Source: Rufibacter latericius
GTDB lineage: Bacteria > Bacteroidota > Bacteroidia > Cytophagales > Hymenobacteraceae
Direction: 5' to 3'
Assembly (NCBI RefSeq): GCF_003721515.1
Contig: NZ_RJJD01000001.1
Coordinates: 186,001 to 250,000 of the forward strand
Length of the DNA: 64,000 nucleotides
Both the position numbers and the translations under genes were made by a program. Of this stretch, positions 2,661-63,370 are shown in pieces. Each line of letters begins with the position of its first letter. The first letter of the stretch is position 1. The notes beneath the pieces were generated by a model that did not search any database, had not been told where the DNA came from, and saw only the letters and a program-made list of their open reading frames with translations.

Positions 2661-2695
2661 GTTTTAAAGCCGTGTCTGGGAAAACAGGCCTAAAG
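2661..2695 (+). repeat. Degenerate copy of the GTTTTAGGCC palindrome family
   Basis: Right behind the terminator lies GTTTTAAAGCC, a short gap, then GAAAACAGGCCTAAAG. The right arm matches the recurrent family well and the left arm only partly. Confidence 0.5.
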
Positions 2696-2810
2696 AAAAC
2701 CTCTGACAAGTAGCTGACCCATCATTCCGCATCCGTATTCTACGCAAGATGATAGATTAAGGAATCTCAATTTTGCCTATCTTCACCTTCAGCACAGATG
2801 AACCATCTCC

Positions 2811-3353
2811 ATGGAATTACACACCTCCCGTTTGCACCTGCGGGAATTCAAAGAAGACGACTGGCATTTCACCAACCTGTATGAATCCAATGAGGAGGTA
2901 ATGCGGTACCAGACCAGCGCAGTGCGCACCGGAAAAGAAAGTCGGGAGTACATTCTGCACTGTCTGGAGGAAGCCAAAGAAGAACCGCGCACCTTGTTTG
3001 ACCTTGCCATCGTGCTGAAGACGACGAACATGCTGATTGGCCGCGTGGGCATGAAAGTGGACTACGATGCCGAGGAAGCCGTGCTGTGGTATATCCTCAA
3101 CCAGACCTACTGGAACAAAGGCTATACCACCGAAGCCGCTGCCGCCCTCCTACGGTTCGGATTTGAAGACCTGCACCTCCACCGCATCTGGGCCGACTGC
3201 GACCCGCGCAACAACGGCTCTTTCCGCATCATGGAAAAGCTGGGCATGCGCCGCGAAGCCCATTTCAGGGAGAACATTTTCATCAAAGGCCACTGGTGCG
3301 ATTCATACGTCTACGCGCTCCTTGATCATGAATGGAAAATAATTAAGAATTAG
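2811..3353 (+). CDS. GNAT family N-acetyltransferase (RimJ/RimL-like)
   Basis: Cytosolic acetyltransferase that uses acetyl-CoA, 180 residues, of the RimJ/RimL/SpeG-like branch. The N-terminus (LHTSRLHLREFKEDDW) is the usual beta1-alpha1 opening. The acetyl-CoA pyrophosphate loop is around residues 102-112 (WNKGYTTEAA), followed by the HRIWADCDPRNNGSFRIMEKLGM motif that marks this branch (split here only for description). The substrate is unknown and could be a protein N-terminus, an antibiotic or a small amine. It stands alone and is followed by an AT-rich heptamer arm and a hairpin. Confidence 0.88.
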   Translation: MELHTSRLHLREFKEDDWHFTNLYESNEEVMRYQTSAVRTGKESREYILHCLEEAKEEPRTLFDLAIVLKTTNMLIGRVGMKVDYDAEEAVLWYILNQTYWNKGYTTEAAAALLRFGFEDLHLHRIWADCDPRNNGSFRIMEKLGMRREAHFRENIFIKGHWCDSYVYALLDHEWKIIKN

Positions 3354-3480
3354 GAATTAAAAACGAGCACCCTCTTCTTTTAAGCCTGTTTTCTGAAAAC
3401 AAGCTTAAAAGACTCCTTTCCCAAAACAATCCCTTAAACTATAATCTATTACTTTTAAGGCCAACCTAATTCCTAATTCT
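3346..3480. repeat. Composite inverted-repeat element with heptamer arms
   Basis: The 14-bp arm AGAATTAGGAATTA (3346-3359) returns as its exact reverse complement at 3467-3480. The left arm overlaps the acetyltransferase stop and the right arm ends just before the next start. Each arm is made of AATTA-containing heptamers, and a 17-bp palindrome (3377-3411) lies between them. The architecture is the same as at 43458-43621. Confidence 0.6.
3377..3411 (+). terminator. Hairpin of the GTTTTAGGCC family after the acetyltransferase
   Basis: The 17-base arms 3377-3393 and 3395-3411 pair with one mismatch around a single base. The left arm reads CTTTTAAGCCTGTTTTC, close to the family consensus. It probably ends the acetyltransferase transcript, although no strong T-run follows. 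Confidence 0.65.
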
Positions 3481-3486
3481 AGAAAA

Positions 3487-4272
3487 GTGCACTTCCTGGA
3501 TCAGATGAACCGCCGTTTATATTTGCCCCAACTGCCTCAGCGGATTGTGTCACTGGTGCCCTCTCAAACGGAGTTGCTGTTTCATCTGGGTTTGGGAGAT
3601 AGGATTGTGGGCATCACTAAATTCTGTATTCACCCGAAGGAAGCGGTAAAAAGGATACCTAAGATTGGCGGCACCAAGAACTTCCATTTTGAGGCCATTG
3701 ACGCGCTGCAACCCGATCTGATTATTGGAAACAAAGAGGAGAACTACCAGGAGGGCATTGAGCGGCTGCAGCAGAAATACCCCGTTTGGATGAGCGACAT
3801 CTACACTTTGGAAGATGTATTTCAGATGATGCAATCCATTAGTCAATTAACCGGCACAGAGGAAAAGGCGCGGGCTTTAGTGAGCACGTTGGAACAGCAG
3901 TTCCTAGAGCTTCGGCCCGCAGAACCGCCCGTTCCTACTGCTTATTTTATCTGGCGGAACCCGTACATGGCTGTTGGCAACGACAACTTTATTGACCACA
4001 TGCTAACCCGTTGCGGGTTTAAGAACGTTCTGGGGCACTTGGCCAGGTACCCTCAGGTTACAGCTGCACAGCTGCAGGAAGCCAGCCCTGAGCTTATTCT
4101 GCTTTCTTCTGAGCCCTACCCTTTCAAGGAAAAACACATTGCCGAGTTCCAGGAAATTTGCCCAAATGCCCGCATCAAGGTGGTGGACGGGGAACTGTTC
4201 AGTTGGTACGGAAGTAGGCTGCTGCACTCTGTTACTTACCTGACCCAATTGATTCGGGAAGTTACCTCTTGA
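3487..4272 (+). CDS. Helical-backbone metal receptor (BtuF-like substrate-binding protein)
   Basis: Protein of the periplasmic-binding-protein class III fold (BtuF/FhuD-like), 261 residues. The opening PQRIVSLVPSQTELLF and VGITKFCIHP are typical of cobalamin/iron-chelate binding proteins. There is no signal peptide or lipobox, so this copy may be cytosolic or the start may be mis-set. The GTG at 3487 is chosen because the residues it adds (HFLDQM) match the family opening; ATG 3505 is the alternative. No ABC permease or ATPase lies nearby, so the ligand is a guess. A corrinoid adenosyltransferase is encoded far away at 61.6 kb. Confidence 0.75.
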   Translation: MHFLDQMNRRLYLPQLPQRIVSLVPSQTELLFHLGLGDRIVGITKFCIHPKEAVKRIPKIGGTKNFHFEAIDALQPDLIIGNKEENYQEGIERLQQKYPVWMSDIYTLEDVFQMMQSISQLTGTEEKARALVSTLEQQFLELRPAEPPVPTAYFIWRNPYMAVGNDNFIDHMLTRCGFKNVLGHLARYPQVTAAQLQEASPELILLSSEPYPFKEKHIAEFQEICPNARIKVVDGELFSWYGSRLLHSVTYLTQLIREVTS

Positions 4273-4314
4273 GCTATCTCAGGAAAAGACTCCAAAGGAG
4301 TTTGCTTTTGCATA

Positions 4315-4923: not shown

Positions 4924-5234
4924 AGTCGTATTCTTTAGTGTTTCCTAAGGTTCTGAGTTTATTAAACGAACCGCACAAGCACCATGTTGTAAATGTTCAC
5001 AATAATATTTCACCATTATCTCATATTACAATCATTTACTTAGAAATACAATATCTTATATTCCCAAACAACCTTTAATAATCGTTGTTAATTTCTATGC
5101 TTTCTTCTGACTCAGAAATATAAAATACAATTCACAAACTCCTTTTAGCCGAATCTTGAAGTATAAACAAACACATATCAAGGAGTTAATTCTTAACAAG
5201 TGCCGCTTTAAGGATGATTTGGAAAAAACCACCT
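4924..5234. other. AT-rich intergenic spacer
   Basis: About 310 bp upstream of the DUF4142 gene. It should hold that gene's promoter, but I find no clear TAnnTTTG box. No ORF, tRNA or convincing structure is seen. Confidence 0.5.
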
Positions 5235-5278
5235 TTAAACAAAAAGCCCTTTGCCAAGGCAAAGGGCTTTTTGTTTAA
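5235..5278. terminator. Terminator after aroA (21-bp perfect stem)
   Basis: Perfect 21-bp inverted repeat (5235-5255 with 5258-5278) around AA, with a GCCCTTTGCC core flanked by A/T runs. It lies 13 bp beyond the aroA stop on the minus strand. Confidence 0.9.
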
Positions 5279-5291: not shown

Positions 5292-6533
5292 CTAAGAAGG
5301 TTCTTCCACGATAAAACCTGCTTTCTGAAGCTCCTCCCAGTACCGAGGATACGATTTTCGGACAACGCGAGGTTCCTCAATAGCTATAGGATAAGTTAAA
5401 GCCAAAGGCGCAAACGCCATGGCCATGCGGTGGTCTTCATAGGTATGGATGCTGGCTTCGCTTTGGGGCTGGTTTCCTAAAAACACCTTGAAAACATCGG
5501 GTTCTGTTTCGCGCAGTTCTGCGCCTAGTTTAACCAATTCAGCTTGCAGTGCGGCAATTCGGTCGGTTTCCTTTATCCGGAGACTTTCCAGGCCGGTCAT
5601 TTCCACCTCTACCTTCAGCCCGGCGGCCAAGGCTGCTACGGTTTGAGCCAGATCTGGACAGGCGAAGAAATCAATTCGTTTAAAGGGCTCTTGCAGGGGC
5701 TGCTTGGTCAATTGGACGCCTTCTGGAGTAAACGTGGTGTGTACGCCAAACGGGGCCATCAAGGAGGGCAGCACGCTATCGCCCTGAAGAGAATCTTCGC
5801 GGAGTGCAGGCAAGAACAAATCGGCCTCTTTGGACAGCGCCGCGATGCTGTACCAGTAACTGGCCGCGCTCCAGTCAGACTCCACCGTGTATTCTTTGGC
5901 TTGGTATTTTTGCTTGGCTACGGAGATTTTCTGGCCTTCAAAGGTGGCCTGCACGCCGAAGTGGGCCATCTGTGCCAAGGTCATCCTGATGTAAGGCTCT
6001 GAACTGATTTTCCCTTCTAGGGTAAGTTCCAACCCTTCCGGCAAAAGCGGTGCGATCATGAGCAGCGCCGAAATATATTGGCTGCTGATATCAGACCGAA
6101 TGGATAACCGATTAGTGCCGGAAAACTCAAACCCGTTCATCTGCAGCGGCGGGTAGCCTTCCTCGCCCAGGTACTTAATCTGCGCTCCCAGTTGCCGAAG
6201 CGCGTCAACCAACACCCCAATAGGTCGCTGGCACATGCGCGGTGTTCCGGTCAACGTTAGTTTCTGGCCGGTGGCCGCGTAATAGGCGGTTAAAAAACGC
6301 ATCACGGTTCCGGCATCCTCGGCGCTAACCTCTGCACCCGCAGGCGTGGACAGCAGGCGGTTCAGGAGTTGGGTATCGTTGGCATCTGACAAGTTATGGA
6401 TAGGAAAGTCTTTCCCCGACAAGGCCCGGATGATGAGGGCACGGTTGGCCTCGCTTTTGGAGGCCGGCAAGGTCACGCGTCCGCGCAACACGCCCGTGGG
6501 GTGCGATACGCGCACGGCAGCAGCTGAAATCAT
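5292..6533 (-). CDS. aroA: 3-phosphoshikimate 1-carboxyvinyltransferase (EPSP synthase)
   Basis: Joins shikimate-3-phosphate with phosphoenolpyruvate in the sixth shikimate step. It has 413 residues and a two-domain fold. Visible motifs are PASKSEANRAL (K26, S27, R31), DAGTVMRFLTA (in place of the usual NAGTAMR), SSQYISALL, ESDWSAASYW, RIKETDRIAALQ, YEDHRMAMAFA and the C-terminal RKSYPRYWEEL. Its ATG overlaps the aroB TGA by four bases (ATGA, 6530-6533), so the two genes are translationally coupled. The Gly-to-Asp change at the start of the NAGT-type motif is a small departure; the rest of the active site looks intact. Confidence 0.95.
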   Translation of the reverse strand: MISAAAVRVSHPTGVLRGRVTLPASKSEANRALIIRALSGKDFPIHNLSDANDTQLLNRLLSTPAGAEVSAEDAGTVMRFLTAYYAATGQKLTLTGTPRMCQRPIGVLVDALRQLGAQIKYLGEEGYPPLQMNGFEFSGTNRLSIRSDISSQYISALLMIAPLLPEGLELTLEGKISSEPYIRMTLAQMAHFGVQATFEGQKISVAKQKYQAKEYTVESDWSAASYWYSIAALSKEADLFLPALREDSLQGDSVLPSLMAPFGVHTTFTPEGVQLTKQPLQEPFKRIDFFACPDLAQTVAALAAGLKVEVEMTGLESLRIKETDRIAALQAELVKLGAELRETEPDVFKVFLGNQPQSEASIHTYEDHRMAMAFAPLALTYPIAIEEPRVVRKSYPRYWEELQKAGFIVEEPS

Positions 6534-7587: not shown

Positions 7588-7625
7588 CGTTTAGCGGCTG
7601 TCTTCCTCAAAAGAGCCGCTAAACG
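7588..7625 (-). repeat. GTTTAGCGGCT hairpin between DAHP synthase and aroB
   Basis: CGTTTAGCGGCT (7588-7599) pairs perfectly with AGCCGCTAAACG (7614-7625), with partial pairing further inside. It has the same layout as the GTTTTAGGCC family with altered core bases, and it sits between two genes of the same pathway. Confidence 0.6.
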
Positions 7626-8887: not shown

Positions 8888-8970
8888 GGCCAATTGATCT
8901 CGTAGCAGGTAGCGTTTTGGGGGTGGTTTTCGCAAATCACCCAAAAAACAACTAACAACCGTTTTTACGT

Positions 8971-10193: not shown

Positions 10194-10243
10194 AAAAGGC
10201 GTTTTGGAGCTGTTTCAGAAGAAACAAGCCCAAAACGCCTTTT
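10194..10243 (+). terminator. GTTTTAGGCC-family hairpin after proline dehydrogenase
   Basis: AAAAGGCGTTTTGG...GCTGTTTC pairs with GAAACAAG...CCAAAACGCCTTTT; the outer 14 bp and the inner 7 bp are perfect. It starts 8 bp after the stop and ends in TTTT, so this copy also works as a terminator. Confidence 0.85.
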
Positions 10244-12455: not shown

Positions 12456-12471
12456 CCTAATAAAGCCTCTA

Positions 12472-12507
12472 TTTAAAGGCTCATTTTCCTAAATAATGCC
12501 TAAAACG
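12472..12507 (+). repeat. Degenerate GTTTTAGGCC element leading into a terminator
   Basis: TTTAAAGGCTCATTTTCC is followed by TAAATAATGCCTAAAACG. The arms pair partly, and the TAAAACG end runs straight into the stem of the next terminator. Confidence 0.5.
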
Positions 12508-13265: not shown

Positions 13266-13397
13266 TTTATTGTTCCTTATTTCGCCGTTCTTAATTCTAT
13301 TTGTCGTTCTATTTAAGGGTTATTTTAAGGAAATAACTCCAAAAACAGCACTACCTTTTCTCGCAAAGCAAGGGGCAATTTACTTGTAATTCTAAAG

Positions 13398-16703: not shown

Positions 16704-16737
16704 AAAAAAGGCCGTTGCTCAAGTGACGGCCTTTTTT
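16704..16737 (+). terminator. Terminator after S41 protease
   Basis: AAAAAAGGCCGT (16704-16715) pairs with ACGGCCTTTTTT (16726-16737) around a 10-base loop, starting 17 bp after the stop. Confidence 0.9.
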
Positions 16738-16740
16738 ATT

Positions 16741-16769
16741 GCCTTTTCCTGAAAAACAGCCCTGAAACG
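16741..16769. repeat. Half copy of the GTTTTAGGCC family
   Basis: Reads CCTTTTCCTGAAAAACAGCC then CTGAAACG. Only the GAAAACAGGCCTAAAACG side is recognisable. It lies between the convergent S41 and PLP-enzyme genes. Confidence 0.5.
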
Positions 16770-16862
16770 AATAAACCCTTTCCTCTCCCAGAGCTAGTCC
16801 AAACCCTAGAAGAAACCTCTTCAGCGATACAGATCCCTCAGTTCGAGACAAGCTATTTCCCG

Positions 16863-16892
16863 CTTGGTTTTCTGAAACCGGGCCTAAAACAG
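16863..16892 (-). repeat. Copy of the GTTTTAGGCC family downstream of the PLP enzyme
   Basis: On the minus strand CTGTTTTAGGCCCGGTTTC is followed by AGAAAACC. The inner part pairs (GGTTTTC/GAAACC) and the outer left arm is well conserved. It is about 30 bp after the stop at 16925. Confidence 0.6.
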
Positions 16893-19129: not shown

Positions 19130-19455
19130 TAACAAAGGGAAAATTTAATTTAATTGTATTAAAAGTAGCAGTAGGCAATAAAATTTCAGATGGATGTATT
19201 TGCAATAGATGCTGAAACAACTTTTTGTCTCAAATTAAAGTTCATAAAATTGTAACCCTCTATATTCATTTTTACAAATATAAAGCTAAAAAGTGCACCT
19301 AATCAGCCCTTTACCTATTTTCTAAGCAAATTTTTTTCAGAAAATTTTTAATAATTCCTACTCCTTTCCAGAATACAGATCGTTCTAAGTAGACAACAAC
19401 AAAGCCACTCTCCCCTAAGCTAACTAACCTGAAATAGGATTATTTTACATAAAAC
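19130..19455. other. AT-rich spacer upstream of the PorP/SprF-like gene
   Basis: About 325 bp, strongly AT-rich. It should hold the PorP promoter. No ORF or convincing repeat is seen apart from the hairpin that begins at 19456. Confidence 0.5.
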
Positions 19456-19514
19456 GGCCTTAAAACGAAAACCCCTCTTTTGCTAGACAGAAGAGGGGTT
19501 TTCGTTTTAAGGCC
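19456..19514 (-). terminator. Terminator with 24-bp perfect stem after gamma-glutamyltransferase
   Basis: 19456-19479 pairs perfectly with 19491-19514 around 11 bases. The outer part is GGCCTTAAAACG, as in the GTTTTAGGCC family; the inner part is AAAACCCCTCTT, shared with the hairpin at 34287. Confidence 0.9.
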
Positions 19515-19605
19515 AATTCAGAGAAATGAGGCAAAAAGCAGTTAGCGGCCTTCCAAAACAACAGATTAAAGGCTCAGGAATATATCCTTTGAGTATGATT
19601 AAGGT

Positions 19606-21321: not shown

Positions 21322-21402
21322 TTGTTTTGAGGGTGATTTTACCAAAAGGGCCTTGAAACGAAAGTTTACTAAGGAGTAAGTAAGGAAATATATCGGCATA
21401 AA

Positions 21403-26305: not shown

Positions 26306-26358
26306 TCAAAGAAGTGACTGTAGGAGGAAGTGAATGAGTGAATAATTTACACCAGCTT

Positions 26359-26390
26359 TTTCGGCCTGTTTTCTCTAAAACAGGCCGAAA
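26359..26390. terminator. Perfect GTTTTAGGCC-family hairpin between convergent genes
   Basis: TTTCGGCCTGTTTT (26359-26372) pairs perfectly with AAAACAGGCCGAAA (26377-26390) around CTCT. One of the cleanest copies of the family, it can serve both flanking genes. Confidence 0.85.
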
Positions 26391-26449
26391 TCATTTTAGG
26401 GCAGGTTTGGTTCTTTCTCTTCTAAACCTCACATCCACAAAGGAGAGAC

Positions 26450-26917: not shown

Positions 26918-27022
26918 AACTTGGGGGATGGTTTCTGACTTTAACGGCGAAAGCGCCTGAAGGATTACAAACACCGTTCAGTTTACCTGTCCCCTCCTGC
27001 TTCTCGTTTTCCTTTTTCCCCG

Positions 27023-27056
27023 CTTTTAGGCCATTTTCTAAAAACCACCTGAAAAA
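27023..27056. repeat. Degenerate GTTTTAGGCC-family copy
   Basis: GCTTTTAGGCCATTTTC is followed by TAAAAACCACCTGAAAAAC. The left arm is well conserved and the right one decayed. Unlike most copies, it lies between two divergent genes. Confidence 0.5.
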
Positions 27057-27218
27057 CACTGATTCTGCAAGTGGTGCCTCCTCAGGTTAGTATCCTTTAA
27101 ACCACCAAGGCAATAATCGAAAAACTAAACGCAGTCATTTTCTTTGGGTCTCGTACAAACAGGTTAGGCCGCTTTCAAAGGCGGCCAGAACCGAATTTAG
27201 ATCTTAACCGAAGCAAGA

Positions 27219-28245: not shown

Positions 28246-28289
28246 AAGCGTTTAGGGGCTACTTTTCAGAAAGTGGCTCCTAAACGCTT
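28246..28289 (+). terminator. GTTTTAGGCC-family hairpin after aldo/keto reductase
   Basis: The 20-base arms 28246-28265 and 28270-28289 pair fully as RNA with two G-U pairs (AAGCGTTTAGGGGCTACTTT on the left), followed by more T residues. The wobble pairs suggest the RNA stem is what is conserved. Confidence 0.85.
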
Positions 28290-30022: not shown

Positions 30023-30064
30023 AAGCAGAAAGGCCGCTCTTTTACAAGAGCGGCCTTTCTGCTT
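30023..30064 (+). terminator. lysS terminator
   Basis: Perfect 19-bp stem (30023-30041 with 30046-30064) around TTAC, with core AAAGGCCGCTCTT. Confidence 0.9.
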
Positions 30065-30095
30065 TGGGGCTATTTTCCTTAAAACGGGCCAAAAA
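30063..30095 (+). repeat. Degenerate GTTTTAGGCC-family copy
   Basis: TTTGGGGCTATTTTCC is followed by TTAAAACGGGCCAAAAAC. It starts at the last bases of the lysS terminator. Confidence 0.5.
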
Positions 30096-36812: not shown

Positions 36813-36867
36813 AAAACGAGTGCTCCTACTTCTGCTTTGAACTGGCAGAAGAGGGAGCACTCGTTTT
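36813..36867 (-). terminator. Terminator after porD
   Basis: AAAACGAGTGCTCC...CTTCTGC (36813-36835) pairs with 36845-36867 at 21 of 23 positions, about 40 bp beyond the porD stop. Confidence 0.8.
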
Positions 36868-36869
36868 AC

Positions 36870-36900
36870 AGGTATTTTCCTGAAAATAGGCCTTAAACAG
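36870..36900 (-). repeat. GTTTTAGGCC-family copy directly after porD
   Basis: On the minus strand CTGTTTAAGGCCTATTTTC is followed by AGGAAAATA. The inner TATTTTC/GAAAATA pair is perfect. It starts 5 bp after the stop. Confidence 0.6.
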
Positions 36901-43459: not shown

Positions 43460-43621
43460 TTATTCATTGTTGATTGCTGATTGTTGATTGTTCTTGAATG
43501 GTCATCACTTCAGCCAGATTATTGGCAAATAGAAAAAGAGACTAATTTGCGTTTAGGGGCTGTTTTTAGAAAAACAGCCCCTAAACAACAATCAACAATT
43601 AACAATCAGCAATTAATAATT
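43458..43621. repeat. Composite inverted repeat with heptamer (ATTGTTG) arms
   Basis: The left arm 43458-43492 carries tandem ATTGTTG/ATTGCTG heptamers. Its reverse complement recurs at 43587-43621 with four or five mismatches in 35. Between them, right against the right arm, sits the perfect 17-bp family hairpin 43551-43586. The layout is like the element at 3346-3480, although the heptamer differs. Confidence 0.7.
43551..43586 (+). terminator. Perfect GTTTTAGGCC-family hairpin after tilS
   Basis: GTTTAGGGGCTGTTTTT (43551-43567) pairs perfectly with 43570-43586 around two bases. It is enclosed by the heptamer arms. Confidence 0.8.
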
Positions 43622-44656: not shown

Positions 44657-44698
44657 AAAACAGGAGAGCCCGGCCAATTAGCCGGGCTCTCCTGTTTT
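44657..44698 (+). terminator. mdh terminator
   Basis: Perfect 18-bp stem (44657-44674 with 44681-44698) around CAATTA. It is preceded by AAACAGCCTTAAAACAGG, a half-element of the GTTTTAGGCC family that runs into the stem. Confidence 0.9.
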
Positions 44699-44702
44699 GG
44701 AC

Positions 44703-44730
44703 CCATTCTGTAGAAAACGGCAATAAAACG
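44703..44730 (-). repeat. GTTTTAGGCC half-element after the amidohydrolase
   Basis: On the minus strand CGTTTTATTGCCGTTTTC starts two bases after the amidohydrolase stop. The second arm is lost. Confidence 0.55.
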
Positions 44731-46022: not shown

Positions 46023-46214
46023 AGGGTAATAATCAGGGTAGGTTTAGATAGCCTAAAGTACTAAAATTCAGGAGAACTAGAGCGAAACCTGCCACTGCCG
46101 TTCGTGGCTCTATTTTATGGCCATTTTACACAAGTCAGGGTAAAACCAATTCTTACCGGGCTTTGCTTATCCCCTTGAAAATGGTTATCTTGACTACATA
46201 AAACACAGAAATTC

Positions 46215-46716: not shown

Positions 46717-47664
46717 ATGACCACCTCTCTTATTATTCTGGCCGCTGTTATTGTGCTATTGGCGCTTTCTGTCCGCATTATTCCGCAGCAGCGGGTGGGT
46801 GTGGTAGAACGGTTGGGCAAATTTCAGCGCCTCATGCACCCGGGACTGAACCTGTTCATTCCCATTGTGGACCGGGTGCGGGTGTACCATGACCTGCGCA
46901 TCCAGCAGACGAACGTTCCGCCACAGTCGGTGATCACCCGGGACAACGTACAGGTGCTCATTGACACCATTGTGTTCTACCAGGTAGTGGGTCCCGAACA
47001 GGCGACTTACGGCATCTTTGACTACGTACTGGGCGTGCGGAACATCACTACGGCCACCATGCGCCAGATCATCGGGAATCTGGAACTGGACGAGACGCTT
47101 TCGGGCCGCGAGCGGATTTCCGCGGAAATCAGGACGGCGCTGGATGAGGCCACCGAAAAATGGGGCGTACGCATTGAACGCGTGGAGGTCATCGACATAA
47201 AACCGCCGCTGGACATCCAGGAAGCCATGGACAAACAGATGAAAGCCGAACGGAACCGCCGCGCCACCATTCTGGAGGCCGAGGCTGCCAAACAAGACAT
47301 GATCCTACGGGCCGAGGGAGATAGGGCCAGTAAAATACTTCGGGCCGAGGGGGAACGGGCTGCCATGGAATTGGATGCTTTAGGCCAGGCCAAAGCCATC
47401 TCTGACATCGCCGAGGCCGAGAAAGCCCGTATTCGGTTGCTGATTGAGGCAGGGTTGGATGAACGGGTCCTCACCTATCGGTCCTTTGAGGCTTTGGAGA
47501 AAATGTCTATGGGACCAGCCAATAAAATCTTCCTGCCTACTGCCGCGGTAGAAACCTTGGGCAATATCGGGGCAATCGGAGACATGCTGAGAAGCAGCAA
47601 AGAGAAACCTGATTCCAGCCTCGTTTCGTTAAAACCAGCCCAAAACGGAGACAAGGTTTCCTGA
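46717..47664 (+). CDS. SPFH/Band 7 (stomatin/QmcA-like) protein
   Basis: 315 residues: one N-terminal membrane anchor (about 3-20), the SPFH domain (about 22-185, QQRVGVVERLGKFQRLMHPG, ILEAEAAKQDMI) and a Glu/Ala/Arg-rich coiled coil (about 190-265). The tail is short and polar. It oligomerises at the membrane together with NfeD proteins and often acts with membrane proteases; two rhomboid protease genes lie just downstream on the opposite strand. The last codons include CGTTAAAACCAGCCCAAAACGG, resembling the intergenic palindrome family. Confidence 0.92.
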   Translation: MTTSLIILAAVIVLLALSVRIIPQQRVGVVERLGKFQRLMHPGLNLFIPIVDRVRVYHDLRIQQTNVPPQSVITRDNVQVLIDTIVFYQVVGPEQATYGIFDYVLGVRNITTATMRQIIGNLELDETLSGRERISAEIRTALDEATEKWGVRIERVEVIDIKPPLDIQEAMDKQMKAERNRRATILEAEAAKQDMILRAEGDRASKILRAEGERAAMELDALGQAKAISDIAEAEKARIRLLIEAGLDERVLTYRSFEALEKMSMGPANKIFLPTAAVETLGNIGAIGDMLRSSKEKPDSSLVSLKPAQNGDKVS

Positions 47665-49597: not shown

Positions 49598-49635
49598 CCT
49601 GTTTTCTGGCCTAAATCCAGAAAAGCGCCTTAAAA
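49598..49635 (-). repeat. GTTTTAGGCC-family copy immediately after mutL
   Basis: On the minus strand GTTTTAAGGCGCTTTTC begins at the mutL stop, followed by TGGATTTAGGCCAGAAAAC. A further partial palindrome is visible. Confidence 0.55.
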
Positions 49636-51483
49636 CTAGTTGCGAAGAAACAAGTCCTGAAGCTGTTCAGTTTGCAGAATCACCAGCGTCTTCTGGCCGC
49701 TGGGCGTGTAATTAGGTACCTGGCACCCAAACAGGCGATCTACCAGCGCGTTCATCTCCTGATCACTCAGGCGGCCGGTAAGCCGCGAAGCCACGCGTTT
49801 GGCCATGGCTCGGGCCAGGTTCTCCTGCCGGTCTACTTTCAGCGAACTCAGGTTGTTTTTGTATTGCTCCAGCAGCCCTTCTATCAGCTCTTTTTCATCG
49901 CGCAGCGGGATCTCCGCCGGAATGCCGTTTACCACCAGCGTATTGTTCCCGAAATCATTGAACACGAAGCCCAGCGCCGTGAATTCCTCAGACAACTCCA
50001 TCACCAGCGAGAAATCGGCGGGCGAGAGTTGGAGGGTCTGTGGGAAGAGCAGTTGCTGCGAGGCACCAGTGCGTTTGCCCAGAGCCTGGCTGTATTTCTC
50101 ATAAAGGATGCGTTCCTGCGCCGCCTGCTGGTCTACCACCATCAAACCAGACTTTACTTGTACCATCAAATACTTCTGGTGCACCTGCAGGGTCTTGGAG
50201 CCGCCGGTTACGCCCGCCTTGGCCGGTGCGAAAGAATCTTCCTCTTCCTCGGGGAACAGGGTAGTGTCTTCTGAGTTGGCGCGGGAAACCTCGCGGGTAG
50301 GGGCAAAATCTGAATAGCTCTCTCCCCTGCCACCGCCCGAAGCCCGGGAAGGAAAAGTAGTAGGTTGGTGGTGACTTGACGATGACCTGGGTGCCTGCGC
50401 GGGAGCGGTCTCAAAATCCATGGAGGCCGGGAATTTCATGGGCTGCAGCGGCATGTAGTTCACATCAGCCCCAAAGTCCAGCGACGGCGCGATGTTGTGC
50501 AATCCCAGGCTCTGTTTCACGGCCGCCCGCACAATGGCGTACACGGTTTTCTCGTCCTCGAACTTGATCTCGGTCTTGGTGGGGTGCACGTTAATGTCTA
50601 TCGTTTCCGGCGCGATTTCCAGAAAAAGCACGTAAAACGGAAAACTGTCCTTTGGCAGCAGGCCTTCGAAGGCGGTGAGCACCGCGTGGTTCAGGTACTG
50701 GCTTTTAATGTAGCGGTTGTTCACGAAGAAAAACTGCTCTCCGCGGCTCTTGCGGGCAAACTCCGGTTTCCCGATGTAGCCTTTGACGGTCAGGAAGGGC
50801 GTGGTTTCCTCACAGGAGGCCATCTGCTCTTTATAGTCCTTCCCGAACATGCTCACAATGCGCTGGCTTAGTTTGCCGGCGGGCAGGTTCATGACCTCCA
50901 CCTCGTTTTGGTACAAAGCGAAAGCGATCTCAGGGTTTGCGAGGGCCACGCGCTGGAACTCGTCCAGAATATGGCGCATCTCCACGGGGTTACTTTTCAG
51001 GAAGTTTCGGCGGGCGGGCACGTTGAAGAATAGGTTCTTCACGCTTACCACCGTTCCCTCGCCCATGGCCACAGGCTCCTGCTTGATGACCTCGTTTCCT
51101 TCAATGGTCAGGCAGGTGCCTAGTTCCGCCCCCCGGGCGCGGGTTTTCATCTCCACCTGGGCTACGGCTGCAATGGAAGCCATCGCCTCGCCCCGGAACC
51201 CCATCGTCTTGATGCGGAACAGGTCTTCGGTGGTTTTTATTTTAGAGGTGGCGTGGCGCTCAAAACACATGCGGGCATCGGTCTCCGTCATGCCTACGCC
51301 GTCGTCCACTACTTGAATGAGCTGTTTGCCTGCATCTTTGATAATCAAGGTTACGCTGCTGCTGCGCGCGTCTACGCTATTCTCCAACAACTCCTTTACC
51401 ACGGAGGCCGGGCGCTGCACCACCTCGCCGGCGGCGATCTGGTTGGCCAGGTACTCGGGTAACAATCGGATAATATCTGCCAT
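49636..51483 (-). CDS. mutL: DNA mismatch repair protein MutL
   Basis: GHKL ATPase that couples MutS mismatch recognition to repair; 615 residues from ATG 51483 (MADIIRLLPEYLANQIAAGE). The frame is open to 51732, but that extension is not conserved. The N-terminal ATPase shows IAAGEVVQRPASVVKELLEN, QVVDDGVGM and TMGFRGEAMASIAA. A Ser/Pro/Thr-rich linker spans about 350-425. The C-terminal dimerisation domain has VVDQQAAQERILYEKY, where the endonuclease motif DQHAxxExxxxE carries Gln in place of His, and CQVPNYTPSGQ instead of the usual CPHGRP, so the nicking site looks altered. Confidence 0.95.
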   Translation of the reverse strand: MADIIRLLPEYLANQIAAGEVVQRPASVVKELLENSVDARSSSVTLIIKDAGKQLIQVVDDGVGMTETDARMCFERHATSKIKTTEDLFRIKTMGFRGEAMASIAAVAQVEMKTRARGAELGTCLTIEGNEVIKQEPVAMGEGTVVSVKNLFFNVPARRNFLKSNPVEMRHILDEFQRVALANPEIAFALYQNEVEVMNLPAGKLSQRIVSMFGKDYKEQMASCEETTPFLTVKGYIGKPEFARKSRGEQFFFVNNRYIKSQYLNHAVLTAFEGLLPKDSFPFYVLFLEIAPETIDINVHPTKTEIKFEDEKTVYAIVRAAVKQSLGLHNIAPSLDFGADVNYMPLQPMKFPASMDFETAPAQAPRSSSSHHQPTTFPSRASGGGRGESYSDFAPTREVSRANSEDTTLFPEEEEDSFAPAKAGVTGGSKTLQVHQKYLMVQVKSGLMVVDQQAAQERILYEKYSQALGKRTGASQQLLFPQTLQLSPADFSLVMELSEEFTALGFVFNDFGNNTLVVNGIPAEIPLRDEKELIEGLLEQYKNNLSSLKVDRQENLARAMAKRVASRLTGRLSDQEMNALVDRLFGCQVPNYTPSGQKTLVILQTEQLQDLFLRN

Positions 51484-51664: not shown

Positions 51665-51705
51665 GGCCTTTTGGCGCGGGTTTTATGGAAACGGGCCTGA
51701 AACCG
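51665..51705. repeat. Degenerate GTTTTAGGCC-family copy
   Basis: GGCCTTTTGGCGCGGGTTTT then ATGGAAACGGGCCTGAAACCG. The right arm is clear. It lies between divergent genes, which is unusual for the family. Confidence 0.5.
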
Positions 51706-51743
51706 AATCATAGAGGGGGCGGCCCTGAACAAATCCGCTTTAC

Positions 51744-51774
51744 AGCCGTTTTCACAGATTCCGGCCTAAAACGG
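51744..51774. repeat. Degenerate GTTTTAGGCC-family copy
   Basis: AGCCGTTTTCACAGATT then CCGGCCTAAAACGG. The outer CCGTTTT/AAAACGG pairs. Second copy in the same divergent spacer. Confidence 0.5.
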
Positions 51775-51860: not shown

Positions 51861-54815
<2,955 letters not shown>

Positions 54816-56009: not shown

Positions 56010-56051
56010 GCTGTTTCGGGGCTGTTTTACCTGAAACAGCCCCGAAACAGC
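56010..56051 (+). terminator. Perfect GTTTTAGGCC-family hairpin after bshA
   Basis: GCTGTTTCGGGGCTGTTT (56010-56027) pairs perfectly with 56034-56051 around six bases. The A/T flank is weak, so termination is not certain. Confidence 0.75.
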
Positions 56052-56699: not shown

Positions 56700-56741
56700 G
56701 CCGTTTTGAAGCCGTTTTCCTGGAAACAGGGCCAAAACGGC
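56700..56741 (+). terminator. GTTTTAGGCC-family hairpin after the NUDIX gene
   Basis: The outer GCCGTTTTG/CAAAACGGC and inner GTTTTCC/GGAAAC pair; the middle is diverged. It starts about 40 bp after the stop. Confidence 0.7.
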
Positions 56742-57830: not shown

Positions 57831-60800
57831 ATGAAGCTTTTTTCGTTCTGGCCCCAGGTGGAACCTGGCCGCCGATTCCTGTATTCCCTTCTTGTTCTAT
57901 TAGCGCTGATTGCCGTCGCCTTTGGGGTGTACGGCTTTTTGCATGGGCAGCAAACCGTATTCCCGCTGGAGAAACAGGCTGAGCTATTCCCTGCTGAAGC
58001 CCATCTGGATTCTGCCACTCCCTTGCTCACGCCCATGCGGGTGGAGGTGAATGCCTACCTGGTCACGGAGCGCTACGCCATTGGCGACATGCAGCTTCCG
58101 CTGTGGGCCACCTTGGTCTATTTTGCGGGTTTGGCCGTGGCTCTCACCTTCTTCTGGACGCTAGCCAGCACCTTGAAACGGATTCCGTATTACGCAGCCG
58201 TAACGTTGGGCATGCTCTGGCTCTCTACCTTCAACCTGGATTTACTGGGCATTTTCTCAGAAACGAGCCGAATCCTGCTCATCATCGCCCTGGGTACTTT
58301 GGGTGCCGGGAGCTTCCTGTTTCAGGCATTCTGGACGCGGGTTTCTTTCCTGGGTCGGTTTCTGTTCTTCAGCATCCTGATCACAGTCATGTGCCTGGCA
58401 CTTTTCCATTTCTCCCCGCTGCCGGCACCGCTTACCGCCTTACACGTGGTAAATTACAGCACCTTGGCCAGCTTTGTGGCAGCCGTCCTGTTCATGGTCT
58501 TGGTGGCCTACGAGAACCTGCACGGGTTGCTTTGGTTCAACACGCAGGCCCAGCAGCCGCAGCGCAGGTTTGGACTGGTGCAGTTTGTGCTCATCAGTGC
58601 CTTGTATCTGGGCAACCTGTTGCTGTTGTATCTGCGCCAGACGGGCATGATCCAATTTGAGTTCACCGGCCTGGATGCCCTGCTCGTGTTCCTGATCTCC
58701 GCTTTGGTAGGACTTTGGGGCCTGAAACAGCGGCAAGGGCAATACACCCGTTTTTTCCGGTTCGAGACGGAGGCAGCACCGCTGTACCTGGTACTGGCTT
58801 TGCTCACGTTCCTGAACCTGGGCTACGCGCTTATGATGGCCAATGACCCGTTGGTGCAAGCCTATAGAAGTGCCGTCATTCTGACCCATCTGGCCTACGG
58901 TGTGGCCTTCTTTATCTACGTCCTGGTGAATTTCGGGCCGTTGATCAAGCAGAAGTTACGGGTGTTCAAAGTAGTGTATGACCCACGCCAGTTGCCGTAC
59001 TTCACCGTGTACCTGATGGGAACGGTGCTCCTGGTGGTTATGCTGATTCGGAGCCAGTACGCCTTATATTTTCAGCACCAGGCGGGTTACTTTAACTACT
59101 TGGGCGACCTCTACCGGCAAACGGAGGAGCAGCCGCTGCTGGCTGAGCAGTTCTACAACGAGGCTAGCATCCAGTCCCGAAACAACCAACGCTCCAGCTT
59201 CTCCTTAGCTGATATGTACCACCAAGGCGGCAGCCGTACCCTGGAGATGCACCGCTTGCAGGAAGCATTGGATAGAAGACCTTCACCGGAAGGCTACCTT
59301 CGCCTAGCCAATCTTTTCACGTCCTCGTCTGATCTGTTTGACCACTTGAAAGTGATGCAGGAAGCGGTAAAAGCTTTCCCTACCAACGCTCCGCTTCTCA
59401 ACAACCTGGGGTTGCTGTACGGCACCACCGCCTTCACCGATTCGGCCGGCTTCTACCTAGATGCCGCCTTAGCCCAGAGCCAGGAACCTGAAGTCATTCA
59501 AGCAAACCAATTGGCATTCTTAGCTAGCCACAAATTCCCGAAGCAAGCGAAAGAGTTTGCCAGTCAATACGCCACAGGCACTTACGGCCCTTTACTCACG
59601 AACCGGCTAGCCATTTCACTGACGCTGGGAGGACCTAAACCGCAAAATCTTCCGGCCCTGCCGCAGGACAGTGCTCTGAGTACCCAAACCTTTGCGCACT
59701 TTTACAACCGTCAGCTTTTCGCGGACAGTCCTAAAGACAGCACTGCCACATTTTCTCGTTTGAACACCTTGCTCCGCCAAGAGGAAAACCAACCGTTCCT
59801 GGATGACCTGACTCTGACCAAAGCATTGTTGCTCAAGCAAGGCAATATTTCTGTACCTCAACCGGGGCAAGCCAAAACCGTCCTTGAGACCTTAGCGGCC
59901 AATAGCGGAGGTGCAGCCGGGTATTATTATGACATTTTGGGCCAGTGGATGATGCAGGGCAAACTGTACCCTTTGGCAGCCGACTATTTTCAGAAGGCCC
60001 GTCAGGCTGGCTACCGCGATGCCCACTTGCATGCGGTGATCGCCTCAGCTTTGGCAGGGAATTACGGGCAAGCCACCGAAGTTGCTTTAGGCGCTTCTGA
60101 TTTCCCGGATGTAGGCCAGCGGAAAGCCGCTACCCAGATTGCCATTGTCACGCAAATGTCTGCGGAGCAAGCCGTCAACTCCCCTGATTCTCTCAAAGTA
60201 CAGTTTCTGCAATTGAAAGCGGCAACGTTGCCCCTGGACCAGGTTGAGAAAGTTGCCAACGCCATCACCACCCCGGCTTTGGCGCCGGTAGCAGCTTTGC
60301 CGCTGGTGGCCCGGTATCTCCAGGAAAACAATTTCAACACGGCCCAGAACCTGCTGAGCATCCATTTTCCGGCTGATTTCGCGAAAAACGGCCTAAAATC
60401 GGAGGCGAATACGTTGCAAGCGGAACTGTGGTGGAGAACCCAGAAAGGGGAGCAGCTAAGCAACGAATTGTCCAGACTCTATTTCACCAAGGCAGAAGCG
60501 GGCACCAGACTTTATTACCAGGCTTTGCTGGCCCAGCGTAATAATAATGCCAAAGCCGCGACTAATCTATTCAACCAGCTCCTGCAGCGGGCACCGTGGT
60601 CTGAAAGTGGGCAATTGGCTGCCGCCGATTTCTTTGTAGCCCAGAAGCAGCCCATGCGGGCATATGACCTTCTGCTGGAAGGCATCGGGTACAATCCTAC
60701 CTCGGTGGCGTTGCGAAAAGCGTACGTGAAAGTGGCCTTGAACCAAGGGCTGCGCGACTACGCCCTACAGGGTCTGGAGCAATTGCAACCTTTGGTAAGT

Positions 60801-61626: not shown

Positions 61627-62174
61627 AAATCTACACCAAAACCGGTGATAAAGGTGAGACATCCCTTATTGGCGGTACCCGCGTAAAGAAATCACATCTG
61701 CGTATTGAGGCTTACGGCACCGTAGACGAGCTGAACTCCTTCATAGGGGTGGTCCGGGACCAGGAGGTAAACCAGAAACGCCAGCCACTTTTCTCCGAGA
61801 TCCAGGACCGTTTGTTCACCATCGGGTCTACCTTGGCCACTGATCCGGTGAAAGAAGGAAAAGTCCACACCCCAGACCTGCACCAAAGTGACATTCAACT
61901 GCTGGAAGACCAGATGGACGTTTTAGACGAAATGTTACCCCCGCTGCGTAACTTCATTCTACCCGGTGGCCATCCGGCGGTCTCGTTCTGCCACGTAGCC
62001 CGTACTGTCTGTCGGCGGGCCGAGCGCCTGGTCATTGCCTTGCAGGAAGAGTCGCACGTAGATGACCTGGTGGTGCAGTACCTCAACCGGCTCTCAGATT
62101 TCCTCTTTGTGCTGAGCCGCGCCAACGGTTTTGAATTAGGAGTAAAAGAAATAACTTGGAAGCCTCGTATGTGA
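61623..62174 (+). CDS. Cob(I)yrinic acid a,c-diamide adenosyltransferase (PduO type)
   Basis: Transfers the adenosyl group of ATP to cob(I)alamin to make coenzyme B12; 183 residues. Motifs: [20 protein letters not shown] (ATP site), [36 protein letters not shown] and [10 protein letters not shown], and [13 protein letters not shown] at the end. It overlaps the ABC ATPase gene by ATGA and is co-translated. Its stop lies inside the hairpin at 62160-62179. A BtuF-like protein is encoded at 3.5 kb, without visible linkage. Confidence 0.95.
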
Positions 62175-62179
62175 GGCTT
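62160..62179 (+). terminator. Short terminator after the adenosyltransferase
   Basis: AAGCCTC pairs with GAGGCTT around six bases and is followed by TTTTTTT; it overlaps the stop codon. Confidence 0.75.
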
Positions 62180-62234
62180 TTTTTATTCAGAATTGCCAGA
62201 ATTGCGTATAATCCTTAGTCATATCACCAAACCT

Positions 62235-63305
62235 ATGCAAACCGAATCCATTTCTATCCATACCACCGTTACCACCGCTAGTCAATTAGCCGATCTTGAC
62301 CTTGAGAACCTGCAGTTCGGGAAAGTTTTCGCCGATCACATGTTGGAGGTTGATTTCAAGGACGGTGCCTGGCAACAGCCACGAATTCTCCCCTACGGTC
62401 CCATTGAGTTGAGTCCGGCTACCGCCGCGCTGCACTATGGCCAAGCCATGTTTGAAGGGATGAAAGCCTATAAAACCCCTGAAGGGAAAGTGGTGCTGTT
62501 CCGGCCGCAGGACAACTGGGCCAGGATGAACAAATCGGCTGTTCGGTTGTGCATGCCGGAGATCCCCGAAGACATTTTCATGGATGGCCTGAAACAACTC
62601 GTCGCCCTGGATGCTGATTGGGTTCCGCAGCGCCCCGGTTATTCTTTGTACATCCGTCCGTTCATGTTCGGGTCTGAAGGGTTGTTGGGGGTTCGTCCGG
62701 CCACGGAATACAAGTTCATTATCTTCTGCAGCCCCGCCAGCGGCTATTACGCTGAGCCGGTGCGCGTGAAGATTGAAGAACACTACACCCGCGCCGTAGA
62801 AGGCGGATTTGGTTTCGCGAAAGCAGCTGGTAACTACGGAGGTTCTTTGCTGCCCGCCAAACTGGCCCACGAAGAAGGCTACCACCAAATAATCTGGACC
62901 GATGGCCGCGAGCACAACTACATAGAGGAATCTGGCACCATGAACGTGATGTTCGTGATTGACGGCACCTTGGTAACGCCAGCCCTAAGCACCTCCATCC
63001 TGGCTGGTATCACCCGCGACAGCGTGCTGCAACTGGCCCGCGACTGGGGCGTTCCCGTAGAAGAAAGACGCATCAAAGTGCAGGAGATCGCCGATGCCTA
63101 CAAAGCTGGTAAACTGCAGGACGCCTTCGGGACCGGTACCGCTGCCACCATCGCCCACATTAAATCCATCACCTTCAGAGGAGAGGAAATGATGTTACCA
63201 CCGGTGGCTGATCGTACGCTTTCAAACAAGATTGCCACTGAGCTGGATAACATCCGCTACGGATTGTCGCCTGATCCACATGGATGGGTAGTTCCCGTGG
63301 TGTAA
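62235..63305 (+). CDS. ilvE: Branched-chain amino acid aminotransferase
   Basis: PLP enzyme of fold type IV that exchanges amino groups between Leu/Ile/Val and 2-oxoglutarate; 356 residues from ATG 62235 (the TTG at 62193 lies in the terminator region). It is the longer (eukaryote-like) form: FGKVFADHMLEVDFKDGAWQ, LHYGQAMFEGMKAYKTPEG, LYIRPFMFGSEGLLGV, the PLP Lys expected in GFAKAAGNYGGSLLPAKLA, EESGTMNVMFVI, and GTGTAATIAHIKSI. It is a single gene ending in a family hairpin with a T-run. Confidence 0.95.
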   Translation: MQTESISIHTTVTTASQLADLDLENLQFGKVFADHMLEVDFKDGAWQQPRILPYGPIELSPATAALHYGQAMFEGMKAYKTPEGKVVLFRPQDNWARMNKSAVRLCMPEIPEDIFMDGLKQLVALDADWVPQRPGYSLYIRPFMFGSEGLLGVRPATEYKFIIFCSPASGYYAEPVRVKIEEHYTRAVEGGFGFAKAAGNYGGSLLPAKLAHEEGYHQIIWTDGREHNYIEESGTMNVMFVIDGTLVTPALSTSILAGITRDSVLQLARDWGVPVEERRIKVQEIADAYKAGKLQDAFGTGTAATIAHIKSITFRGEEMMLPPVADRTLSNKIATELDNIRYGLSPDPHGWVVPVV

Positions 63306-63326
63306 TCTTTGAGTTAAATTTCTTTG

Positions 63327-63370
63327 ATCCGTTTCGGGGTTGTTTTCTGTAAAACGGCCTTGAAACGGAT
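63327..63370 (+). terminator. GTTTTAGGCC-family terminator after ilvE
   Basis: ATCCGTTTCGGGGTTGTTTT (63327-63346) pairs fully with 63351-63370 if G-U pairs are allowed, around CTGT, and runs into eight T residues. Confidence 0.9.

What the first reader, a model, noticed from the sequence alone, without database searches (positions are those of the whole stretch)
2661..63370. A recurring 3'-end palindrome family, consensus CGTTTTAGGCCTGTTTTC plus its reverse complement
About two dozen intergenic spots share the same words. Full hairpins: 3377, 7588, 10194, 26359, 28246, 43551, 56010, 56700, 63327. Decayed or one-armed copies: 2661, 12472, 16741, 16863, 27023, 30063, 30363, 34262, 34568, 36686, 36870, 44703, 49598, 51665, 51744. 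Most lie within ~60 bp after a stop codon. Read on the sense strand of the preceding gene, the CGTTTTAGGCC-TGTTTTC arm usually comes first. Several copies (34568, 44703, 49598) keep this arm but have lost the partner, so a simple terminator stem does not explain the conservation. Sequence and structure both seem to matter, as if a protein or RNA binds it. In several places the TAAAACG end runs directly into the stem of a normal terminator (12503, 19456, 34287, 44657). I do not recognise the family.
Basis: seen in the sequence. Interest (0 to 1): 0.75.

Follow-up and report, generated by a model that had tools for sequence, protein, structure and literature searches.

The report
Genus-wide 38-bp palindromic DNA signal
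One genus of bacteria carries thousands of copies of a 38-letter mirror-image DNA word, mostly just past gene ends but also written into genes by silent letter changes, which suggests that a protein reads it along the chromosome.

Summary
All 24 listed spots are copies of one 38-bp palindrome, in essence GTTTT-n6-GTTTT-n4-AAAAC-n6-AAAAC. A profile finds 270 copies in 400 kb of this genome outside the window (about 3,800 per genome) and 169 in 400 kb of a congener. All 16 held genomes of the genus carry it; the strict pattern occurs in 7 of 390 genomes of the order, all of this genus. Copies peak 20-80 nt after stop codons, but others lie inside genes, where, with protein and codon usage fixed, they are 17-fold in excess in this genome. 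A copy inside mutL, without gap in the protein, is kept in 13 of 14 congeners and scores lower in all 12 outgroup genomes. So coding copies arise by point mutation, not insertion. Arms vary nearly independently and copies ignore intrinsic terminators; a near-perfect minority in this genome probably doubles as terminators. Best reading: a chromosome-wide DNA signal read by a protein, comparable to uptake sequences or HIP1 but longer and symmetric. Protein and function are unidentified.

The parts
2574..2611 (.). palindrome copy, intergenic, score 28.7
3376..3413 (.). palindrome copy, intergenic, score 27.9
5204..5241 (.). palindrome copy, intergenic, score 29.4
5459..5496 (.). palindrome copy inside ORF 5292-6533 (-), labelled aroA from memory; score 36.9, above all 5000 synonymous recodings
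7588..7625 (.). palindrome copy with fully paired spacer, intergenic, score 31.1
8913..8950 (.). palindrome copy, score 35.2, called intergenic (overlaps the longest possible ORF 7784-8944)
10200..10237 (.). palindrome copy after stop at 10186, score 32.8, followed by T-rich DNA
12470..12507 (.). palindrome copy after stop at 12455, score 30.0; by eye running into a terminator stem
13310..13347 (.). palindrome copy, intergenic, score 29.0
16732..16769 (.). palindrome copy, convergent gap, score 29.4; by eye starting in the T run of a terminator
16854..16891 (.). palindrome copy, convergent gap, score 32.0
19430..19467 (.). palindrome copy, intergenic, score 22.8
19503..19540 (.). palindrome copy, intergenic, score 28.7
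21323..21360 (.). palindrome copy, intergenic, score 35.2
26356..26393 (.). palindrome copy with fully paired spacer, convergent gap, score 35.3
27021..27058 (.). palindrome copy, divergent gap, score 32.4
28249..28286 (.). near-perfect copy followed by T6, terminator-like; RNA fold of 28236-28300 is -32.3 kcal/mol, z -8.6
30060..30097 (.). palindrome copy, convergent gap, score 38.0; by eye after a terminator
30362..30399 (.). palindrome copy, convergent gap, score 25.4
31790..31827 (.). palindrome copy, intergenic, score 26.8
32574..32611 (.). palindrome copy, intergenic, score 27.4
34259..34296 (.). palindrome copy, convergent gap, score 33.6
34562..34599 (.). palindrome copy, convergent gap, score 33.2; no stable RNA hairpin (z +1.2)
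36683..36720 (.). palindrome copy, intergenic, score 32.0
36862..36899 (.). palindrome copy 5 nt after the stop of 36905-37819 (-), score 37.5
42807..42844 (.). palindrome copy inside ORF 41894-43459 (+), score 33.1, kept (27-39) in 6 of 6 relatives tested
43115..43152 (.). palindrome copy inside ORF 41894-43459 (+), score 21.4, kept in 4 of 6 relatives
43550..43587 (.). highest-scoring copy of the window, 42.7, upstream of the malate/lactate dehydrogenase gene 43697-44635
44693..44730 (.). palindrome copy, convergent gap after 43697-44635, score 27.3; by eye after a terminator; no stable RNA hairpin (z -0.5)
46111..46148 (.). palindrome copy, intergenic, score 24.3
47610..47647 (.). palindrome copy inside the 3' end of gene 46717-47664, score 27.4
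49600..49637 (.). palindrome copy overlapping the stop of mutL by 2 nt, score 21.9; no stable RNA hairpin (z -0.5)
50602..50639 (.). palindrome copy inside 49636-51711 (-), named mutL from memory of the peptide; score 30.2, conserved in the genus without protein gap
51667..51704 (.). palindrome copy at the called 5' end of mutL, score 27.1; not kept in G051 and G037, the true start may lie downstream
51736..51773 (.). palindrome copy, divergent gap, score 27.8
54523..54560 (.). palindrome copy inside gene 51861-54815, score 22.2, weaker or lost in relatives
56012..56049 (.). palindrome copy with fully paired spacer after stop at 55975, score 35.2
56702..56739 (.). palindrome copy after stop at 56660, score 37.8
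60363..60400 (.). palindrome copy inside gene 57831-60881, score 29.7
63330..63367 (.). copy that pairs fully if G-U counts, followed by T8, terminator-like; RNA fold z -6.9

Best explanation
The copies are DNA recognition sites, not mobile elements and, taken together, not RNA structures. Each is a 38-bp two-fold symmetric site with four GTTTT/AAAAC boxes; the two boxes of each half lie about one helical turn (11 bp) apart. A symmetric DNA-binding protein (a dimer, or a dimer of dimers) of this genus probably reads them. Selection or a copying bias (drive) acting on single base changes creates and keeps them about once every 1.3 kb (this genome) to 2 kb (G012), wherever genes tolerate them: mainly just after stop codons, rarely just before starts, and inside genes through codon choice. 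Some copies after stop codons have secondarily become intrinsic terminators. Shown by computation: abundance, near-confinement to the genus, symmetry, spacing (rigid in G012, looser here), base-level constraint, gain by substitution inside a gene, independence from terminators. Inferred: that a protein reads it, that it is a dimer or tetramer, and its use. My first guess for the use is a gene-end or chromosome-organising site (about 40%); an uptake-type self-recognition signal is second (about 25%).
For: Abundance and false-positive rate. All 16 held genus genomes: 14 of 14 sampled, this one included; all 15 fetched congeners; strict pattern in 7 of 390 order genomes, the 7 genus members in the sample, reversed control 0 in all. 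Columns TT (3-4) and TTT (14-16) are 86-96% conserved here and 93-98% in G012 even when left out of the scoring, while adjacent T columns are 58-66% here (82-89% in G012). Arms vary nearly independently in most columns. Half-sites alone show no excess; spacing is rigid in G012 (151 canonical, 2 and 3 one base off). Orthologous intergenic sites in three close relatives: core identity 0.87-0.93, flanks 0.74-0.76, other motif columns 0.66-0.73. Codon-shuffle excess 40 against 2.4 here, 11 against 2.2 in G012; repeated with gene ends trimmed, with a profile from another species, and on the untrained window. mutL site gained without indel. 3 whole-site absences in 95 site comparisons, none with clean ends. 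Terminators independent: 52 joint against 49.9 expected, 22 sites before and 27 after the terminator. Gaps between sites more even than a matched null (here 0 of 300 simulations, G012 P 0.03); coding sites farther from intergenic sites than random coding positions (here P 0.023; G012 P 0.22 with 16 sites).
Against: No binding protein was found: ParB_N and HU/IHF families show no genus-specific extra copy in the 8 genus genomes sampled, and only these two families were tested. In this genome the spacing test is looser: 204 canonical, 64 and 80 one base off. Columns 5 and 6 covary in both genomes (z 3.4-4.6), and near-perfect arm pairing exceeds independence in 4 of 5 genome groups, so something also favours palindromy. 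In this genome the 16 near-perfect co-directional copies show an RNA-level sign (G-U 20, A-C 2; none has another terminator), found after splitting into 15 group-by-class cells and not repeated in the other groups (15 to 22 pooled). In mutL 3 of 12 outgroups (11.5, 19.1, 20.5) pass the lowest calling threshold, so the protein itself favours a near-match. In G022/G017 the coding excess is seen only at higher thresholds (15: 6 against 2.4, shuffle maximum 5; 20: 6 against 1.0, maximum 3; at 10: 7 against 5.1, maximum 8). Counts per 20 kb are not significantly under-dispersed (P 0.14, 0.15). Profile information (27 and 42 bits) far exceeds the 10.5-11.2 bits needed to find that many sites, more than plain selection for binding predicts.
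Confidence: 0.65

Rival explanations
1. Uptake-type self-recognition signal: a DNA import machine of this genus prefers DNA carrying the palindrome, and biased import plus recombination builds up copies genome-wide, as argued for DUS in Neisseria and USS in Pasteurellaceae.
For: Density (mean gap 1.3 and 1.9 kb) is like the 1,150-1,500 nt between DUS in meningococci (passages of PMC2397512). Intergenic excess with 83 of 270 inside called genes; 47-70% of USS are inside genes in five genomes (passages of PMC2346458). DUS pairs act as terminators. Depletion on two plasmid-like contigs: 1 and 4 sites per 40 kb against 438 and 525 per Mb on the same chromosomes. Information far above what is needed, as expected of drive.
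Against: Known uptake signals are short and not palindromic (recalled). A third small contig of G006 (7.5 kb) has 3 sites. The one paper search on uptake sequences, Bacteroidetes and natural transformation listed 3 papers, none on this by title.
Confidence: 0.25
2. REP-like or MITE-like mobile repeats moved by a Y1 (RAYT) transposase and now decaying.
For: Palindromes of REP size, mostly intergenic near gene ends; Y1_Tnp genes in 15 of 16 genus genomes.
Against: Y1_Tnp is also over the cut-off in 27 of 33 non-genus genomes that lack the palindrome or nearly so and absent from G017, which is full of it. No GTAG or CGTC tag clearly above chance. No clean insertion in 95 comparisons. Coding copies by substitution. 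Core columns resist change in place. Copies avoid clustering here (in G012 the matched null is not rejected for short gaps, P 0.22).
Confidence: 0.07
3. RNA 3'-end element: terminator or mRNA-stabilising hairpin.
For: Strong folds at 3 of 8 copies folded (28249, 43550, 63330: z -6.9 to -8.6) and a moderate one at 56702 (z -3.6); near-perfect copies in this genome sit after stops, lack another terminator (0 of 16 co-directional) and prefer G-U to A-C 20 to 2.
Against: Arms vary nearly independently in most columns; the other 4 of 8 copies folded do not fold well (z +1.2 to -1.0); G-U equals A-C overall (236 against 230); 27 of 52 lie beyond the intrinsic terminator; copies inside genes and in divergent gaps; T tracts are inside the arms; no Rfam match at gathering threshold in the window.
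Confidence: 0.1
4. Product of a mutation or repair bias, as proposed for HIP1 (methylation-dependent mismatch repair), with template switching perfecting palindromes, and no binding function.
For: Excess of near-perfect arms with many different spacer sequences in 4 of 5 groups, without an RNA sign outside this genome; information well above need; HIP1 precedent (abstract and passages of PMC4390886).
Against: A 38-bp four-box site is far longer than known methylase targets (recalled); the need for both halves points to a long-range reader; 0 of 43 coding copies of score 20 or more have near-perfect arms.
Confidence: 0.08

Closest known systems
DNA uptake sequences (DUS of Neisseriaceae, USS of Pasteurellaceae)
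   Same: Hundreds to thousands of chromosomal copies about every 1-2 kb, intergenic excess, many inside genes, some doubling as terminators, lineage-specific; here also sparse on two plasmid-like contigs.
   Different: 38 bp, palindromic, four boxes, gapped and degenerate; Bacteroidota; no uptake link tested.
HIP1, the highly iterated palindrome of cyanobacteria
   Same: Highly iterated palindrome of unsettled use across a bacterial lineage.
   Different: HIP1 is an octamer tied to methylases; this is a 38-bp degenerate site concentrated after stop codons.
REP / BIME elements with RAYT transposases
   Same: Palindromes of 20-40 bp, many copies, mostly after genes.
   Different: No tag excess, no transposase association, no insertion seen, present in codons by substitution.
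parS and Noc-type binding sites
   Same: The inner 16 bp TGTTTTCnnGAAAACA resemble parS (recalled); symmetric protein sites spread over a chromosome.
   Different: Thousands of copies; extra outer boxes; one ParB_N gene per genome in the 8 genus genomes sampled, as in most sister genomes.

Membership tests
REP elements (GTAG/CGTC super-families) | Terminal GTAG or CGTC tag at one end | tested here: not met
   GTAG/CTAC below random expectation in both genomes; CGTC/GACG 2 and 7 against 8.0 and 6.9 here, 5 and 7 against 4.5 and 4.9 in G012, so no clear excess; definition from passages of PMC3733652
REP elements (GTAG/CGTC super-families) | Associated RAYT transposase, gene flanked by the repeat | tested here: not met
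   Y1_Tnp does not track the palindrome; 16 copies (profile >=15) in 7 transposase loci of 23 kb, 0.70 per kb, against 0.60 and 0.42 per kb in the two sampled genomes, not a clear enrichment
REP / MITE | Copies arise by insertion | tested here: not met
   mutL, no gap; 3 whole-site absences in 95 comparisons, 0 clean
Intrinsic terminator | GC-rich stem followed by a T run, acting on RNA | tested here: not met
   whole family; met in part by a near-perfect subset in this genome
DNA uptake sequence | Highly over-represented, chromosome-wide, in and between genes | tested here: met
DNA uptake sequence | Promotes uptake or transformation | not testable with these tools
   needs a transformation assay
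DNA uptake sequence | Sparse on plasmids and recent acquisitions | tested here: inconclusive
   two plasmid-like contigs, 40 kb sampled from each, are poor in copies; plasmid nature not proven; a third contig (7.5 kb) has 3 sites, and one of 4 chromosomal stretches of G006 has only 2
Symmetric protein-binding site | Fixed spacing, both halves needed, base-specific constraint | tested here: met
   spacing rigid in G012, looser in this genome
Symmetric protein-binding site | A bound protein | not testable with these tools
   only ParB_N and HU/IHF copy numbers checked
HIP1-like motif | Link to a cognate DNA methylase | not tested
   no methylase search made

The most novel reading that the evidence does not exclude
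A bacterial genus has evolved a chromosome-wide punctuation system: a dedicated tetrameric DNA-binding protein occupies about 2,000-4,000 palindromic sites, roughly one per gene end, strongly enough to shape codon choice inside genes, organising or insulating transcription units in a way for which I recall no bacterial counterpart.
Probability: 0.3. Interest if true: 0.92.

Novelty: new variant of a known kind. Interest (0 to 1): 0.78.

Why it matters
From general knowledge, few bacterial groups are known to carry chromosome-wide iterated DNA signals, and those that were understood revealed a basic process: DNA uptake, recombination or repair. This one is long, symmetric and nearly confined to one genus with complete genomes, so its origin can be dated against sister genera that lack it, and its reader could be fished out with a single 38-mer. 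If a protein occupies it, it would be an unusually numerous class of strongly conserved protein sites on a bacterial chromosome, and a handle on what happens at gene ends.

Tried and rejected
RNA hairpin family: 22 window copies chosen by match to a palindromic consensus showed covariation, but that choice favours palindromy. In unselected copies the pairing excess is small in most columns, with a near-perfect minority. REP/RAYT: rejected. Half-site as the unit: rejected. An equivalent palindrome of other sequence elsewhere: not seen in 9 non-genus groups of 40-293 kb each, testing only inverted exact 6-mers. Known RNA families: none at gathering threshold in the window. Phage origin: one viral contig holds a single strict copy. 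Paper searches for this motif or genus with repeats, uptake signals or nucleoid proteins listed nothing that looked relevant by title; only open PubMed Central text was searched. Weaknesses: my gene caller is home-made and finds 76-78% coding, so some 'coding' copies near gene starts are probably misplaced starts (trimmed); my terminator finder is home-made too. The profile for this genome was trained on the same 20 stretches in which densities were counted (controlled by the untrained window and by a profile from another species). Markov shuffles do not model codons (controlled by codon shuffles; at threshold 11.33 these still give 12.8 where 88 coding sites are found). The synonymous-recoding fractions are for sites picked because they score high, so they are not corrected for that choice; 7 of the 8 coding sites were tested (51667 was not). 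Core-column identity was measured on sites chosen by score in this genome.

Full report
Observation. The window shows 28 palindromic sites at 25 or more of 36 consensus matches against 0 in each of 10 order-2 Markov shuffles. All 24 listed coordinates coincide with a site (for 23 of them, for 63330). A symmetric 38-column profile trained on 20 other 20-kb stretches of the same genome finds 270 sites in those 400 kb at threshold 11.33, estimated false discovery 1.5% from order-3 Markov sequence; the same procedure on congener G012 finds 169 in 400 kb at 2.4%. Scaled up this is about 3,800 and 2,000 per genome. Real DNA of Pontibacter/Adhaeribacter gives 32 per Mb at that threshold and Hymenobacter 10, against 675 here, and none at 20 or more. 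The untrained window has 51 sites, of which 41 score 20 or more.

Where it occurs. The covariance model R1 matched 15 of 60 genomes of the family at E <= 1e-5: 14 of 14 in the window's genus (this one included) and one genome of another genus (two places on re-search, one strong). All 15 fetched congeners carry 7 to 16 sites of score 20 or more per 20 kb. The strict pattern GTTTTn6GTTTTn4AAAACn6AAAAC occurs in 7 of 390 genomes of the order, the 7 genus members in that sample (4 to 589 copies), and its reversed control in none. In 99 of the non-genus loci held (1.89 Mb) 3 sites score 20 or more. One congener (G042) has a contig of the same length, 468,943 bases, as a contig of Sabulibacter ruber, so the genus is probably the Rufibacter/Sabulibacter group of Hymenobacteraceae; this is inference from one contig length and from recalled taxonomy.

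Anatomy. The information is concentrated in two boxes per half: TT at columns 3-4 and TTT at 14-16 are 86-96% conserved here and 93-98% in G012 even when those columns are left out of the scoring, whereas the adjacent T columns fall to 58-66% here (82-89% in G012). Each half holds two GTTTT words 11 bp apart. Spacing between the halves is rigid in G012 (151 canonical, 2 and 3 one base off) and looser here (204, with 64 and 80 one base off, perhaps from slippage of the T runs); half-sites alone are not in excess, and the halves do not differ in strength relative to transcription.

DNA or RNA. If base pairing were conserved, arm positions would covary. In unselected sites the excess of Watson-Crick pairs over independence lies between -0.09 and 0.09 here and reaches 0.16 in one column of G012; columns 5 and 6 are significant in both genomes (z 3.4-4.6). 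In co-directional sites, sense-strand G-U pairs (168 and 68) match A-C mismatches (148 and 82). Intrinsic terminators occur independently of sites (52 joint against 49.9 expected in this genome; 29 against 29.7 in G012), and sites lie before (22, 12) or after (27, 17) them, 3 overlapping. So the family as a whole is not read as RNA. A minority differs: in 4 of 5 genome groups near-perfect arms are more common than chance (33 against 8.0 here, 50 against 22.2 in G012; not in G022/G017, 16 against 18.7), with many different spacers; 0 of 43 coding copies here are near-perfect. In this genome these copies sit after stops, none of 16 co-directional ones has another terminator, G-U beats A-C 20 to 2, and in convergent gaps half are followed by T-rich DNA. 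This split was made after the fact over 5 groups and 3 classes, and the other groups pooled give 15 to 22, so I claim a terminator role only for this genome's near-perfect copies, and only as probable.

Position. Site centres peak 20-80 nt after stop codons (6.5-11.5 per kb here, 6.1-7.6 in G012, against 0-3 farther out) and are scarce within about 60-80 nt of starts. Of convergent gaps of 100 bp or more 26 of 27 hold a site, of co-directional 81 of 119, of divergent 23 of 37; in G012 25 of 30, 64 of 119 and 18 of 39. Gaps between sites are more even than in a null that keeps intergenic occupancy (CV 0.81 against 0.95 here, 0 of 300 simulations as low; 0.83 against 0.95 in G012, P 0.03), but counts per 20 kb are not significantly even (P 0.14 and 0.15).

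Inside genes. 83 of 270 sites lie in called genes (16 of 169 in G012). Shuffling synonymous codons within each gene leaves 2.4 sites of score 20 or more where there are 40 (G012: 2.2 against 11); in Pontibacter/Adhaeribacter genes there are none. Trimming gene ends gives 24 against 0.9; a profile from G012 gives 25 against 1.8 at its threshold 10; the untrained window gives 4 against 0.4; close relatives 14 against 1.2; G012 8 against 1.4; G022/G017 show an excess at the higher thresholds only (15: 6 against 2.4; 20: 6 against 1.0; but 7 against 5.1 at 10). In mutL (name recalled from the peptide) the same ungapped peptide carries the site in 13 of 14 congeners with a match (score 26.5-30.8; G045 6.6; the G060 stretch gave no match), while 12 outgroup genomes score -13.5 to 20.5, all lower than the 13; 3 of the 12 (11.5, 19.1, 20.5) would pass the lowest calling threshold, so the protein sequence itself brings a near-match. 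Seven of the 8 window coding sites were tested: their scores are reached by at most 8 in 5,000 synonymous recodings, without correction for having been picked by score. Thus coding copies were written by substitution.

Evolution in place. At orthologous intergenic sites core columns keep 0.90, 0.93 and 0.87 identity with G051, G037 and G006, flanks 0.76, 0.76 and 0.74, other motif columns 0.73, 0.70 and 0.66. Three whole-site absences in 95 comparisons lacked clean ends. Of the double changes at once-paired positions 25 of 53 and 20 of 35 end paired, more than the third or so expected by chance (my estimate), in line with the near-perfect subset.

Mobile and plasmid-like DNA. Two secondary contigs (235 kb and 155 kb, 40 kb sampled from each) carry 1 and 4 sites of score 15 or more against 438 and 525 per Mb on their chromosomes; a 7.5-kb contig carries 3, and one of four chromosomal stretches of G006 only 2. 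One phage-like contig holds one strong copy.

Interpretation. Insertion is excluded for the coding copy examined across outgroups and unsupported for intergenic ones; RNA is excluded as the general level. What remains is a symmetric DNA signal created and kept base by base. A protein reader is the natural inference but none was found. Use: gene-end or chromosome organisation, or an uptake-type self signal. Density, intergenic bias, coding copies, terminator doubles and sparsity on two plasmid-like contigs resemble DUS/USS (passages read in PMC2397512 and PMC2346458); symmetry and length do not. HIP1 (abstract and passages of PMC4390886) and REPs (abstract and passages of PMC3733652) were compared and differ as listed.

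Noticed in passing
window 36900-42550: A 5.6-kb run of genes has no copy scoring 15 or more in the window, and none is shown over the same genes in the 14 congener stretches that hold them, although the average here is one per 1.3 kb.
   Followed up: partly
L189 (G008 C14:96305-96350): A single strong copy in a genome of another genus of the family (R1 43.7 bits; profile score 41); possibly transferred DNA.
   Followed up: no
L203 1274-1311: A strong copy between ORFs of a phage-like IMG/VR contig, the only viral contig with the strict pattern.
   Followed up: partly
G006 C2, G048 C2 (L204, L205, L207, L208): Plasmid-like contigs with about one fifth or less of the chromosomal density of copies; my gene caller finds few genes there, which suggests atypical codon usage.
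   Followed up: partly
G045 mutL (L088): One congener lacks the mutL copy through substitutions (score 6.6) with one amino-acid difference in the 43-residue peptide, a natural test case for whether loss matters.
   Followed up: no
G000 against G012 profiles: Strength and spacer dialect differ between species: exact four-box copies range from 4 (G006) to 589 (G012) in 7 genus genomes, and spacer preferences differ.
   Followed up: partly
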